Positions 32,599 to 43,721 of a stretch of DNA of 64,000 nt are shown piece by piece. Source of the stretch: a virus; IMG/VR virus record IMGVR_UViG_3300031952_000001, positions 1-64,000 of that record. One strand, written 5' to 3'. The stretch's first letter is position 1. Every line of letters starts with the position of its first letter. The translations under genes and the position numbers were made by a program. A model generated the notes under the pieces. It saw nothing but the letters and a program-made list of their open reading frames with translations. It was not told the origin of the DNA and ran no database searches.

Positions 32599-32619
32599 CA
32601 CGAGGCTAATGAGGCTGTA

Positions 32620-33630
32620 GTGGATCCTTTGATCACATCCAAAAGATGTTCCTCCTGCAAAATGGAGAAGCCTCTTTCTGATTTTGGTTTTAGAAAGAGG
32701 TCCAAGGACGCACATCATTACAAGTGCAAGGTGTGTACGAACCTGTACACGCGGAAAACACGAAGTCCTGATTTTGTATCCACCCGCAGGAAGGTGGAGG
32801 TGGTTGATGGTCTCCTGAAGTGTACTAGGTGTAATGAGATAAAGCCTTTAACTGCGTTTTCGAAGAACCGTAGCAGTCATACAGGTCTTGATTACTGCTG
32901 CAAGGACTGTACCAGGAGGATTTCTAAAACCAGATTGGATAATCTCAGGGTTATTGGAGTTGTGCAGAAAGTTGGTAGGAAAGTTTGTTCACACTGTGGC
33001 GTTGAGAAGGACATTACCCTCTTTAGGATTCTTATTGGCGGGTCTGGAGGAAGATCCAGAGTGTGCAAAGATTGCATTAACTCTTCGGAGCGGGAGCGCC
33101 AAAGCTCACAAAATCACGTCCCGGATCTTCAAGGTACCAAGGTTTGTAGTTCTTGTGGTTTATTGAAAAAGAACACTGAGTTTTATAAGTTCAAACACCA
33201 CAAGGACGGGTTGGATTCTGCATGTAAAGACTGTGTTCAACTACGCAAGAGTAGCTATTTTAGGAAGAACGTGGTAGCCCAGCTTAGATTTAAGATCAGA
33301 CGACGTTTGGGGTACTACGCAAAGCGTAATAAGTGCTTGAATAAAGACTATGCAATTTTGTTTCTTGGGTGTTCTCTTCATGAGTTGCTGTCATACTTAG
33401 AAATTAGGTTTTATTCCGACCCTAGAACCGGGGAGGCTATGACTTGGGATAATTATGGACAGCGGGGTTGGCACATCGATCATATCTACCCCTTGTCCAA
33501 GGTGAATCTTCTTGATGATTTGGAATTTAAGAGGGCTTGTCACTATACGAATTTGCAGCCACTTTGGTGGTGGGAAAATCTTGAAAAAAGTTCTAAAATC
33601 ACTTCGGACTTGAAGTCTGAGGTTGTTTGA
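32620..33630 (+). CDS. HNH homing endonuclease with four zinc-finger repeats
   Basis: The product is 336 residues, starting with GTG at 32620. Four CxxC...CxxC units occur in tandem (RCSSCKMEK/YKCKVCTN; KCTRCNEIK/CCKDCTRR; VCSHCGVEK/VCKDCINS; VCSSCGLLK/ACKDCVQL), each about 35-45 residues, followed by a basic segment and the C-terminal HNH core WHIDHIYPLSKVN...ACHYTNLQPLWWWENL. The core closely resembles that of the HNH at 3293-4192. The DNA is visibly AT-richer than the flanks, a sign of recent arrival. It separates the membrane metallopeptidase gene from the fibre gene. Alternative start: TTG 32629. Confidence 0.85.
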   Translation: MDPLITSKRCSSCKMEKPLSDFGFRKRSKDAHHYKCKVCTNLYTRKTRSPDFVSTRRKVEVVDGLLKCTRCNEIKPLTAFSKNRSSHTGLDYCCKDCTRRISKTRLDNLRVIGVVQKVGRKVCSHCGVEKDITLFRILIGGSGGRSRVCKDCINSSERERQSSQNHVPDLQGTKVCSSCGLLKKNTEFYKFKHHKDGLDSACKDCVQLRKSSYFRKNVVAQLRFKIRRRLGYYAKRNKCLNKDYAILFLGCSLHELLSYLEIRFYSDPRTGEAMTWDNYGQRGWHIDHIYPLSKVNLLDDLEFKRACHYTNLQPLWWWENLEKSSKITSDLKSEVV

Positions 33631-39561: not shown

Positions 39562-39670
39562 TGGTCGTTCGCTTTGTACGTGCTTTTTAAGGCGGTGCAG
39601 AACAACTACACCAAAACTCGTGCCGGATAATTCTGGTGCGTTTTCGGCTATTTGGCCGCTGGAGGATTCG

Positions 39671-40864
39671 ATGTCGGACGAAGCCAACACTGGTGATCTC
39701 GTGGGGTGCCCGGATCCAGAAATCTTCAAGTGCAGCATCTGTGGAAAGGATAATTTCACAAGTGCAAGGTACCTGAAGACGCACATGACGGCGAAGCACT
39801 CGGGGAAGAAAAAGCCCACGGATGGTCCCGTGGAAGCTCCCGGACCCGAGACTGCCACCCCGCCGCCAGCTGATCCACCTCCGGAGGCCCCTGAGGCCAC
39901 CCCGCCGCCGTCTCGGGCGGAGAAACGGAAGGCTTCCGCTTCGGAAACGGCCGCTCAGGTGTCGGAAGTGGCTGCGGTGCCACCGGCCACCCCTCCAGGG
40001 GTCCCTCCTGCGACCCATCTGGATCTCCCGGTGGGCTCTGTCTTGCAGCTCGATGGCCCGACATGGCGGCAGGATGCCGTCACAGGTGCGTGGACCAGCG
40101 CAGCGGTCTCGAAGTTGACCGTACAGGTGTTCAGTAAGGCTGAATCCGCGGGGGACGTGATGCTCCTCTGCCGGGCCGAAGGGGATCCCTCGACTTGGTC
40201 CGTTCAGCAGGCCTACGCGCTCTCCGGTGCCGTGAACATCCTGAAGGTCGCCCCTTCGGTGTTTCCGGTGCCACCGGCCGGTCCTCCGCCGATCCCGGGC
40301 ACCGCTGCGCAGTCCGAGCCCGTCGAGGATCCGGAGAAGGTGCGTGCCGAGCAGGAAGAGCAGGAGCGCCAGCGGCTCGCAGCCGAAGAGGCGAAGCGAC
40401 TCGCGATGGAGGAGAGCAAGAGGGCCGCGGAAGCCGAGCACCAGAAGAGGAACGACCTGGCCGAGTTCCGGCTCATGGCCTCTACCTATCTTGAGAAGCA
40501 AGAGGCTTTCAGTCTTGCCCAAAGAGATTTCGAGTCCTACAGCTCCGCCTACACGAAGCACTTCGCGGACTGCATCCAGAAGTACGGTTCCGAGGGCTGC
40601 CTGGAAGCCGAGGGCTTCGTGGTCCAGATCTCGGATGACCCCGAGGGCTCCCCGTTCCAAGACGAGGCTGCACTCATCGAGTGGTGCCAGGAGTCTGGGA
40701 ACGACGACCTCCTGACCCTGAAGATCGACAAGGTGAAGTGGGCACGCTTCAAGGAGCAGGTCGAGAAGGGTTCTTCTCCGGAAGCAGGAAGGCTGGACGT
40801 TCGAGTGGTTCTTGCGCAGATGGAAGGCGAGCCCCAGAAGAAGCTGTCGATCCGGAAGTTGTAG
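39671..40864 (+). CDS. C2H2 zinc-finger protein with Pro-rich linker and coiled coil
   Basis: The product is 397 residues. ATG 39671 follows GGAGGA and an upstream in-frame start is rejected. Residues 21-43 form a classical C2H2 finger, CxxC-x13-HxxxxH (Cys21, Cys24, His38, His43). Then comes a Pro/Ala/Thr-rich linker (about 50-130), a beta region, and a charged coiled coil (about 235-300, EEQERQRLAAEEAKRLAMEE). C2H2 fingers are rare in phages; a second one occurs in the gene at 57086. It may bind nucleic acid or act as a protein adaptor. The next gene on this strand is the exonuclease-UDG, separated by the TnpB insertion. Confidence 0.6.
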   Translation: MSDEANTGDLVGCPDPEIFKCSICGKDNFTSARYLKTHMTAKHSGKKKPTDGPVEAPGPETATPPPADPPPEAPEATPPPSRAEKRKASASETAAQVSEVAAVPPATPPGVPPATHLDLPVGSVLQLDGPTWRQDAVTGAWTSAAVSKLTVQVFSKAESAGDVMLLCRAEGDPSTWSVQQAYALSGAVNILKVAPSVFPVPPAGPPPIPGTAAQSEPVEDPEKVRAEQEEQERQRLAAEEAKRLAMEESKRAAEAEHQKRNDLAEFRLMASTYLEKQEAFSLAQRDFESYSSAYTKHFADCIQKYGSEGCLEAEGFVVQISDDPEGSPFQDEAALIEWCQESGNDDLLTLKIDKVKWARFKEQVEKGSSPEAGRLDVRVVLAQMEGEPQKKLSIRKL

Positions 40865-40865
40865 G

Positions 40866-41080
40866 AGGCGTGGGAACCCGTTTCTGTCATGCGCTATCAG
40901 CTACAACTGACGGCTTGTCCGTCTCCTCCCCGGTTTTCCAGACCGGATCGTTGGAGCGAACTTAGGGGGCGCATGACTCGCCCCATCCTCGCTCAGAGCT
41001 TGCCGAGCGAGGATACCGCGCAACCGGATGTTGTGCGCGGCGTTGAGATCAGCATGAAGGCTGTGCCCGCAGGCCTTGCA
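40866..41080 (-). ncRNA. Candidate omega-RNA region at the tnpB 3' end
   Basis: TnpB nucleases use a guide RNA transcribed from the 3' end of their own gene and the right end of the element. By that rule the scaffold would cover the last 150-200 bases of tnpB and run out past the stop at 40901 on the minus strand, with the guide taken from the flank beyond. A five-pair stem (GACGG/CCGTC, 40909-40923) lies just inside the stop. Placement is by family knowledge only. Confidence 0.3.
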
Positions 41081-42103
41081 GAGGAAGAGGTTGCCTTGGC
41101 GGTTGGAGGCTTCAGTGTGACCGCATCGAGAGCACCCCTGGCTGGTGTACCGGGGGTCGATCCCCACTACTACCATTCCGAGCCCTTCAGCTTTGTAGGT
41201 GATGAACTTTCGGAGCTGACCGTAGGCCCAACGTCCAATTTCTCGGCGTTGAACTTTGCGGAGCCGGCGATTCCGGATACCTTCGAGGTCTTCGATGGCG
41301 ATCACAGGGCATCCTGTCCTCTCGGCGAAGGTGACCACTGCCTTGCCGACCTCGTGATTGACTGCTCGCATGAATCGCGCCTCTCGGCCAGACAGCCGTT
41401 TGAGGACCTTAGCGACGGAGCGCGTCGGGTGCTCTGCCTTTCTCTTTTGGAGAGACGCGCGAACATTCGAGTATCGATCACGAAGATGCTTGGTGTGCCC
41501 ACCCTTGCGCATCCAGTGGCGTTTGCCATCTGTGGCGCAGGCGAGGACGTTGATGCCGCGGTCTACGCCGATGACGGCGTCGTTCGGGGCTGTTCTTTGT
41601 TCAACCTCCTTCTTGAAGCTGAGGGTCAGGAAAACGTGCTTCCTGGACACCGAGAGGCGACCATCCCCAAGATTCCAGTTGTTCAACTTGTCTTCGAGGT
41701 CTGGAGGTCCCTGGAAGGGAACTGCCTTGAAACGTCCGTCGACCGTCCAGATAGAGAGTCCGGATGCGCGCAGGGAGACGTCGCGCCCGCGTGTCCCTCC
41801 TTGCAGTATGACGGCTTGTTTTCGGAATTGGCAAGGGGCTTTGGGGCTGCGCTTGTTAGAACGGATGGCCGCATACTCACTGGCGACATGTCGTATGCAG
41901 GAGCCAGCAAGTTGGGCAGACAAACCGACTTCCTTAGCGGGTCTGTAAGCCAATTTTTGAAGTCGAATGGCATTCGACAAACAGCCGTTTTCAAAAGCGA
42001 TCCTGCTCACGAGGTTGCAGGCTTCGGTCCAAGTATTAAGTGTTCGAACAGCAGCTTCTCGGGGCAGGTTGATTTTGATTTTGACTGTTCTCGCTATTTC
42101 CAT
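40901..42103 (-). CDS. tnpB: TnpB RNA-guided nuclease
   Basis: The product is 400 residues from ATG at 42103; a longer reading frame exists but the family starts with a short strand like MEIARTVKIKINLP, as here. The three RuvC pieces are visible: VIGVDRGINVLA (Asp), VIAIEDLEGI (Glu) and HADLNAAHNI (Asp), and between the last two the four-cysteine zinc finger CSRCGH...CKACGH. All three catalytic acids are present, so the enzyme should be active. TnpB cuts DNA under omega-RNA guidance and helps its element persist. The minus-strand promoter at 42142-42114 would give a nearly leaderless mRNA. Transcription would oppose the dominant direction of the phage and could form antisense RNA to the exonuclease leader. 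Confidence 0.85.
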   Translation of the reverse strand: MEIARTVKIKINLPREAAVRTLNTWTEACNLVSRIAFENGCLSNAIRLQKLAYRPAKEVGLSAQLAGSCIRHVASEYAAIRSNKRSPKAPCQFRKQAVILQGGTRGRDVSLRASGLSIWTVDGRFKAVPFQGPPDLEDKLNNWNLGDGRLSVSRKHVFLTLSFKKEVEQRTAPNDAVIGVDRGINVLACATDGKRHWMRKGGHTKHLRDRYSNVRASLQKRKAEHPTRSVAKVLKRLSGREARFMRAVNHEVGKAVVTFAERTGCPVIAIEDLEGIRNRRLRKVQRREIGRWAYGQLRKFITYKAEGLGMVVVGIDPRYTSQGCSRCGHTEASNRQGNLFLCKACGHSLHADLNAAHNIRLRGILARQALSEDGASHAPPKFAPTIRSGKPGRRRTSRQL

Positions 42104-42113
42104 CACATCCCCA

Positions 42114-42142
42114 AGTCTAATCATTCTGTCGGAATTTGTCAA
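42114..42142 (-). promoter_or_regulatory. Sigma70-type promoter of tnpB
   Basis: On the minus strand TTGACA (42142-42137), a 17-base spacer and TAGACT (42119-42114). The expected start is near 42107, four bases before the tnpB ATG, so the message has almost no leader. Confidence 0.6.
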
Positions 42143-42163
42143 GTGGGCTTTTTTCCGGTTGAC
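42138..42163. repeat. Imperfect palindrome at the upstream end of the TnpB element
   Basis: GTCAA (42138-42142) pairs with TTGAC (42159-42163); a further GTGG/CCGG part extends the stem with one mismatch and one G-T pair around an eight-base loop GCTTTTTT. It overlaps the -35 box of tnpB and ends eleven bases before the exonuclease ATG. It may be the left-end hairpin of the element; the T-run could also help terminate + strand transcripts. Confidence 0.4.
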
Positions 42164-42173
42164 AGGATTCAGC

Positions 42174-43721
42174 ATGCCTAGAGTTTTACTTATAGATGGA
42201 AATCCTTTCCTCTGGCGTGCTGCGCACTCCAGTCCGATGGAGATGGTCGCGAACAAGATCCTGACCTACATCTTCGAGGTCTTGGGCCAGTTCACCCCCG
42301 ACGATATGATCATCTGCTGGGACCGCGGAAAGTCGCGGTGGCGCAGCGAGCTGTACGAGGACTACAAGGCCCACCGCCTCCAGCAGAAGAGGGACAGCGA
42401 CCTGGACCTCGAAGCTCTCAACGAGCAGGGGATCCTCGTACAGCGCTACTTGACCTCGGTCGGGGTTCGCCAGGTGTTGGTCTCCGGCGTCGAGGCGGAC
42501 GACACCCTCGCCTGGCTGTCGGACCACTTCAAGAGCCTCCCCGGGGACTGGCACATCGTGCTCGTGACCGGGGACCGGGACTTGTGGCAGCTCGTCGACT
42601 TCAAGCTCAACGTCTGGGACCACCAGCGCCAGCTCCTCGTCACCCCGGGGGTCGTCGAGGAGGACCTCGGGGTGCCTCCGGACAGGATCGCCGACTTCAA
42701 GGCTCTCGTCGGGGACCCCTCCGACAACCTTCCCGGGGTGAAGCAGGTCGGAGAGAAGACCGCGGCCAAGCTGCTGAAGAAGTTCGGCAGTCTCGGGGAG
42801 ATCCTGAGTCTTGAGAACGTGGAGTTCTTGGAGAAGCGGAAGACGACCGCCCGGGTCCTCCCTGAGGGTGAATTCGTCGCGGAAATGTACCGCCTCGTGA
42901 AGCTGCCGACCTTGCGGGAGGCCGCCGAGTGCCTTTCGAAGGAGGAGCATGATCTTCTCGTCGAAAACCTCACGGTTCCGCTGTCGAGGGACGCCTTCCG
43001 GTCGCAGGTGTTGTCGGAGCGGATCGGCCCTACGTTCCTCACGAGCGTAGGGCGGCTCCCAGCCTACTCTTCGGACCTGACGGGCATGGTGGCGTGCATG
43101 GATCAGAACAGCGGTCAGAATCGGTCCTGGGCCTCCCTGGGGGAGGTCGACTTGGCGATCTCGCAGTGCAACCGGTGCGCCTTGCGGAAGGACTGCGATC
43201 CGGAGGGCCCAACCTACCCCGAGGGCTCGTCCGACCGGCAGATCATGATCCTCGGGAGGAACCCCGGGCTCCAGGAGCGGCGATACGGTCAGCCGTTCTT
43301 CCCTGAGGCTCCTGCCGGCGGTCGGCTGGATCGGTTCTTGGAGGAGGCCGGCATCGACCGGCGGGAGTGCTGGATCACGAACACCTGCAAGTGCTACTCC
43401 CAGGACGACCGCCCGCCGACCTACCCCGAGATCCTGCTCTGCCTGCCGTACCTGAGGGCCGAAATCGACCTCTTGAAGCCCAAGCTGATCATCGCTTTCG
43501 GAAACGAGGCGATGATGGCTGTAACTCCGTACAGGAGCAGGGTCACGAAGCACTGCGGGGAGATCCTGGAAAACCCTGAGGGCCTCATAGGGCCCATCGA
43601 GGCCTACGTCGCCATCAGCCTGCACCCGTCAGCCGCGTGTCGGTCGCCGCAGAACGACAGAGACGTGGAGTACGCTGCCACGGTGGTCCATGACTTTTTA
43701 GCGAAAAGGACGACAAAGTGA
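42174..43721 (+). CDS. 5'-3' exonuclease fused to family-4 uracil-DNA glycosylase
   Basis: The product is 515 residues. ATG 42174 gives the PIN/FEN start MPRVLLIDGNPFLW; AGGA at 42164-42167 is the binding site. Residues 1-290 are a flap exonuclease: VEADDTLAWL (106-115), VTGDRDLWQL (131-140) and the helix-hairpin-helix part GDPSDNLPGVKQVGEKTAAK (180-199). Residues about 325-510 are a family-4 uracil-DNA glycosylase: iron-sulphur cysteines Cys332, Cys335, Cys407 and Cys423, GRNPGLQERRYGQPFF (361-376) as uracil-pocket loop, and SLHPSA (482-487). The fusion would couple primer or flap removal with uracil excision. It opens the replication block. Both domains look complete, although the first pocket motif is GRNPG rather than GEAPG. 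Confidence 0.85.
   Translation: MPRVLLIDGNPFLWRAAHSSPMEMVANKILTYIFEVLGQFTPDDMIICWDRGKSRWRSELYEDYKAHRLQQKRDSDLDLEALNEQGILVQRYLTSVGVRQVLVSGVEADDTLAWLSDHFKSLPGDWHIVLVTGDRDLWQLVDFKLNVWDHQRQLLVTPGVVEEDLGVPPDRIADFKALVGDPSDNLPGVKQVGEKTAAKLLKKFGSLGEILSLENVEFLEKRKTTARVLPEGEFVAEMYRLVKLPTLREAAECLSKEEHDLLVENLTVPLSRDAFRSQVLSERIGPTFLTSVGRLPAYSSDLTGMVACMDQNSGQNRSWASLGEVDLAISQCNRCALRKDCDPEGPTYPEGSSDRQIMILGRNPGLQERRYGQPFFPEAPAGGRLDRFLEEAGIDRRECWITNTCKCYSQDDRPPTYPEILLCLPYLRAEIDLLKPKLIIAFGNEAMMAVTPYRSRVTKHCGEILENPEGLIGPIEAYVAISLHPSAACRSPQNDRDVEYAATVVHDFLAKRTTK

What the first reader, a model, noticed from the sequence alone, without database searches (positions are those of the whole stretch)
40866..42173. Antisense TnpB with complete catalytic site and no transposase
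The only minus-strand gene is a TnpB with all RuvC acids and an intact zinc finger, own promoter and palindromes at both ends, lodged directly before the exonuclease-UDG start. Lacking TnpA, it may survive as an RNA-guided homing nuclease, or have been adopted by the phage for use against rival phages or for control of the neighbouring genes.
Basis: partly seen in the sequence, partly recalled or inferred. Interest (0 to 1): 0.7.

Follow-up and report, generated by a model that had tools for sequence, protein, structure and literature searches.

The report
Lone TnpB nuclease in phage
A large, undescribed phage carries, between two of its own genes, a complete RNA-guided DNA-cutting gene (TnpB) with no transposase; comparison with a relative shows it is kept intact and was recently shared at the same site, as a selfish homing gene would be, although this kind of gene is itself well known in phages.

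Summary
An intact minus-strand tnpB (40901-42103, 400 aa) sits between a gene of unknown function and the exonuclease-UDG gene of a 212-kb virus record. All RuvC acids and the zinc ribbon are present, with a good promoter-like site and a TnpB-type right end (hairpin, ...TGAC at 40886); the left palindrome is no better than chance. No TnpA exists in the whole record, but two unrelated TnpBs do. One relative carries the same element at the same place; seven contigs of three other lineages have the two genes adjacent and empty. Between the two carriers, tnpB synonymous divergence is 0.04 against 0.28-0.58 in neighbours, 12 of 15 changes are silent, and the high-identity tract begins and ends close to the element. 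Best reading: a transposase-less TnpB that survives by RNA-guided homing (cutting empty alleles of co-infecting phages), like T4's free-standing homing endonucleases. Omega-RNA, TAM and cleavage are inferred. Mosaic recombination is common between these phages (about 30% of aligned sequence is near-identical), so plain recombination remains possible. Harm to rival phages would be a by-product; nothing supports gene regulation. New member of a known kind.

The parts
40901..42103 (-). tnpB, 400 aa, RuvC D181/E271/D352 and four-cysteine zinc ribbon intact
42114..42142 (-). promoter-like site TTGACA-N17-TAGACT for tnpB
   Evidence: consensus match only
40886..41100 (-). structured 3' end of tnpB, expected omega-RNA scaffold (5' limit not known)
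   Evidence: fold z -3.2 on 40870-41100; no change between the two carriers in 40885-41338
40886..40917 (-). right-end hairpin CAAGCCGTCAGTTGTAGCTGATAGCGCATGAC, presumed right boundary
   Evidence: resembles CAAGC-hairpin-...TGAC at the 3' ends of relatives L016, L017, L019, L020
40866..40885 (-). expected guide, first 20 nt: AGAAACGGGTTCCCACGCCT (inferred from the right boundary)
   Evidence: matches only its own locus in the phage and in four relatives; the 18-nt core AACGGGTTCCCACGCCTC, which runs one base past this end, occurs in viral contigs only in the second carrier
42104..42173 (.). left end plus original upstream region of exonuclease-UDG; exact left boundary and TAM not resolved
   Evidence: sequence; palindrome TGTCAA..TTGACA not better than shuffles
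39620..40864 (+). upstream gene, 414 aa, unknown function, intact; tail to tail with tnpB
   Evidence: homologues lie next to exonuclease-UDG in empty relatives
42174..43721 (+). 5'-3' exonuclease fused to uracil-DNA glycosylase, intact; divergent from tnpB
40835..42284 (.). tract of 98.7% identity with IMGVR_UViG_3300032156_000007 inside sequence of about 89%

Best explanation
It is a transposase-less IS200/IS605-type (IS1341-like) element whose TnpB is an active RNA-guided nuclease. Inferred mechanism: the 3' end of the tnpB transcript becomes the omega-RNA; its guide is the flank just past the right end (40885 downwards), that is, the short intergenic stretch and the end of the upstream gene. 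The nuclease therefore recognises the uninterrupted site in related phages in the same cell and cuts it; repair from the element-bearing genome copies the element across with a little flank. The carrier is spared because the element separates TAM from target. Shown: intact protein, purifying selection, right-end anatomy, occupied and empty alleles, recent sharing between two phage lineages at the same site. Inferred: omega-RNA, TAM, cleavage, homing.
For: No TnpA in the whole 212-kb record or in six related records. Same insertion in a second phage lineage; the same two genes adjacent without it in seven contigs. dS 0.042 and dN 0.003 in tnpB against dS 0.28-0.58 in the neighbours tested; 3 replacement of 15 changes, p about 1e-5 against a neutral 3:1 expectation. 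High-identity tract 40835-42284 starts 51 bp outside the right end and stops within about 150 bp of the left. No other copy of the right-end sequence in viral contigs. Intergenic placement in a replication/repair gene region (exonuclease-UDG, SNF2 helicase, DnaB-like helicase, DNA polymerase A downstream), as for T4's free-standing endonucleases (PMC2988022). TnpB as a gene drive against element-free plasmids has been shown by experiment (PMC11870625).
Against: Near-identical blocks are common between these two phages: 13.9 of 46.9 kb aligned, up to 2.9 kb long, so the shared tract could be ordinary recombination; the fit of tract ends to element ends is the main discriminating point and is modest. 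Only two occupied alleles are known and no close empty allele (nearest empty relative is 62% identical in the neighbour protein). The two carriers differ at 40883-40884, at positions 2-3 of the expected guide. No RNA or cleavage data.
Confidence: 0.58

Rival explanations
1. An inert or weakly active lone TnpB passenger: it arrived by transposition with a TnpA supplied in trans, and the copy in the second phage was carried by ordinary homologous recombination between related phages, without any drive.
For: Mosaic exchange is frequent between the two phages; TnpBs without TnpA are common (general knowledge).
Against: Protein kept under purifying selection; tract ends lie close to element ends.
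Confidence: 0.25
2. Adopted by the phage as a weapon: the same cleavage of empty-site relatives is maintained because it excludes rival phages (marker exclusion), not because the element copies itself.
For: The target would lie in a gene neighbourhood that relatives share; one relative carries its own RNA-guided system, a Cas12m with a CRISPR array.
Against: No sign of a guide pointing anywhere but its own site, and that site's sequence is not conserved in the known empty relatives.
Confidence: 0.1
3. An ordinary IS200/IS605 element still moved by a host TnpA.
For: Right end of the usual type; relatives such as the Streptomyces one have TnpA beside TnpB.
Against: One site only, in two phages; no convincing left-end hairpin.
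Confidence: 0.04
4. An RNA-guided transcriptional regulator of neighbouring genes (TldR-like exaptation).
For: Lies in the 70-bp divergent region upstream of exonuclease-UDG; its transcript would run antisense into the end of the upstream gene.
Against: All three RuvC acids intact, whereas TldRs have lost the nuclease; the expected guide is an ordinary right-flank guide.
Confidence: 0.03

Closest known systems
IS1341-type / lone TnpB elements of the IS200/IS605 superfamily
   Same: TnpB with TNB zinc ribbon and intact RuvC, right-end hairpin ending TGAC, no TnpA
   Different: in a phage; best full-length relatives only about 36-40% identical; left end not recognisable
TnpB gene drive in plasmids (PMC11870625)
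   Same: mechanism proposed here: guide taken from own insertion site, cutting of element-free replicons
   Different: there a complete IS on plasmids, tested by experiment; here no TnpA, a phage, untested
Free-standing homing endonucleases of T4-like phages (seg, mob; PMC2988022)
   Same: intergenic placement between phage genes, occupied and empty alleles in relatives
   Different: those are GIY-YIG or HNH proteins that read their targets by protein, often far from the insertion site; here the target would be read by RNA at the insertion site itself
Cas12f effectors (PDB 9nzq, 8j12, 7wju)
   Same: nearest solved structures by sequence
   Different: no CRISPR array in the phage record

Membership tests
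TnpB (RNA-guided endonuclease family) | match to curated TnpB model above cut-off | tested here: met
   NF040570 165.2 bits, cut-off 100
TnpB (RNA-guided endonuclease family) | RuvC D/E/D and four-cysteine zinc ribbon | tested here: met
   invariant columns D181, E271, D352, C324, C327, C342, C345
TnpB (RNA-guided endonuclease family) | omega-RNA from the 3' end, guide from right flank | tested here: inconclusive
   structured 3' end, z -3.2, right-end motif; no RNA data
TnpB (RNA-guided endonuclease family) | RNA-guided DNA cleavage next to a TAM | not testable with these tools
   needs a cleavage assay
Complete IS200/IS605 insertion sequence | TnpA (Y1 transposase) in the element | tested here: not met
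   no PF01797 match in the 212-kb record
Complete IS200/IS605 insertion sequence | subterminal hairpins at both ends | tested here: inconclusive
   right end yes; left end not above shuffles
Homing element | occupied and empty alleles at one site in related genomes | tested here: met
   occupied in two records, empty in seven contigs
Homing element | recent horizontal spread at that site with short flanking co-conversion | tested here: inconclusive
   dS contrast and tract ends fit, but mosaic blocks are common
Homing element | biased inheritance after cleavage of the empty allele | not testable with these tools
   needs coinfection
TldR regulator | loss of RuvC catalytic residues | tested here: not met
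   all present
Type V CRISPR effector | CRISPR array | tested here: not met
   no array by exact 20-mer repeat scan in the record

The most novel reading that the evidence does not exclude
A transposase-free TnpB that lives in a phage lineage purely by RNA-guided homing between co-infecting phages, its guide always read from its own flank: an RNA-guided counterpart of T4's free-standing homing endonucleases.
Probability: 0.4. Interest if true: 0.65.

Novelty: new member of a known kind. Interest (0 to 1): 0.4.

Why it matters
Many TnpBs have no transposase beside them and how they persist is open. A phage pair with occupied and empty alleles, low synonymous divergence confined to the element, and mostly silent change offers a direct test of persistence by homing in phages, where the well-studied homing endonucleases read their targets by protein.

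Tried and rejected
Hit at 32617 in the TNB search: zinc ribbon of an endonuclease VII / Lar-like gene, not TnpB. L003 as a relative: a 20-residue match only. Rfam: nothing credible. Guide elsewhere in the phage or relatives: best off-site matches 15-16 of 20, scattered. Exact guide core in viral contigs: only the second carrier. Idea that the insertion displaced a promoter motif seen before exonuclease-UDG in relatives: the motif is not enriched in this phage, dropped. Close relatives in GTDB genomes: one at 36%; phage and plasmid records: nothing at or above 60% identity. DNA similarity of the locus to known phages: none. No structure was predicted; sequence evidence was enough for the family.

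Full report
What is there. The minus-strand frame 40901-42256 encodes a TnpB. Alignment with relatives and the position of a promoter-like site (TTGACA-N17-TAGACT, 42142-42114) put the start at 42103, giving 400 aa. It scores 165 bits against the curated TnpB model (cut-off 100) and carries PF07282 and PF01385. The three RuvC acids and the four zinc cysteines are invariant across eight TnpBs. The nearest solved structures by sequence are Cas12f-type proteins; ISDra2 TnpB is more distant. Phage and plasmid relatives are all under 60% identical, and the GTDB genome scan gave one at 36%.

Ends. The 3' end of the gene and the bases after it fold better than all shuffles (z -3.2), as expected for an omega-RNA. 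Relatives end in CAAGC-hairpin-...TGAC; the window has CAAGCCGTCAGTTGTAGCTGATAGCGCATGAC ending at 40886. I take 40886 as the right boundary and the minus strand from 40885 as the guide; this is inference. The left boundary is not resolved: the palindrome there folds no better than chance, and both carriers share the same left flank.

No transposase. The record is 212 kb. It has no Y1 TnpA. Its single serine recombinase hit lies at 94 kb. It has two other TnpBs, 20% identical to this one, at 96.4 kb and 187.7 kb, also between genes, so this phage lineage has acquired TnpBs more than once.

Alleles. One IMG/VR contig, IMGVR_UViG_3300032156_000007, has the same element between the same genes. Relatives with 39-62% identical exonuclease-UDG have the two genes adjacent and no TnpB between them (L060-L064, L067, L068; in L067 the upstream gene was judged by eye from its C-terminal sequence, the search gave no hit). 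Neither neighbour is damaged by the insertion.

Divergence. Between the two carriers tnpB has dS 0.042 and dN 0.003; the neighbours tested have dS 0.28-0.58. Of 15 changes 12 are silent (p about 1e-5 against a neutral 3:1 expectation), though seven of the changes fall in 34 bp and are not independent. The best 1.3-kb window in the 19.3-kb alignment around the locus is this element (98.8%; best elsewhere there 95.0%, mean 87.9%). The near-identical tract is 40835-42284, starting 51 bp beyond the right end and ending 111-150 bp beyond the possible left ends. Caution: across all 46.9 kb aligned, 13.9 kb lie in near-identical blocks, and one 5.4-kb stretch is 97.3% identical. Exchange between these phages is therefore general, and only the match between tract and element favours homing. 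I put the chance of that match at the order of one in a hundred for random blocks of the right length; this is a rough figure of mine, not a tool result.

Guide. The expected guide has no other good match in this phage or in four relatives, and its 18-nt core occurs in viral contigs only in the second carrier. The right-end sequence too occurs only there. The two carriers differ at 40883-40884, next to the boundary; each guide still equals its own flank by construction.

Mechanism. TnpB takes its guide from its own insertion site and cuts copies that lack the element; this acts as a gene drive in plasmids (PMC11870625). T4-like phages carry free-standing homing endonucleases between conserved genes, with co-conversion of flanks (PMC2988022). 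The simplest reading of the present case joins the two. TldR regulators, which are phage-encoded (PMC13418256), have lost the nuclease residues, and this protein has not. Phage-borne TnpB and Cas12-like genes are widely reported (for example PMC12607003), so the kind is known; what is less usual is the allele evidence.

Limits. No RNA, cleavage or inheritance data; two carriers only; left end and TAM unknown; host unknown; the empty relatives are too distant for the exact pre-insertion site to be read.

Noticed in passing
G002 (IMGVR_UViG_3300017963_000003) about 125400-128685, minus strand; L023, L025, L033: A relative phage carries a Cas12m-like gene (642 aa; PDB Cas12m match 8e-61) directly before a 17-repeat CRISPR array (repeat core ACCTGCGAGACGGTTTAGAAGTCTCGAC). 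Spacer 3 matches the phage's own genome at 162475 over its first 30 bases with one mismatch, then diverges.
   Followed up: partly
record positions 96409-97593 (+, L014) and 187709-188863 (+, L015), outside the window: Two more intact TnpBs without Y1 TnpA; the second starts three bases after the stop of a gene 70% identical to one in G002 that looks like a large terminase.
   Followed up: partly
window 32620-33630 +: One gene joins Lar-like zinc ribbons with an endonuclease VII domain (PHROG matches).
   Followed up: no
record ends, about 1-1321 and 210615-211930: The two ends of the 212-kb record are 88% alike over 1.3 kb in direct orientation; a diverged terminal repeat or an assembly effect.
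   Followed up: no
window 41702-41735 and 41339-41360: Seven differences between the two carriers fall in 34 bp of tnpB and four more in 22 bp, hinting at exchange with a third tnpB variant.
   Followed up: no
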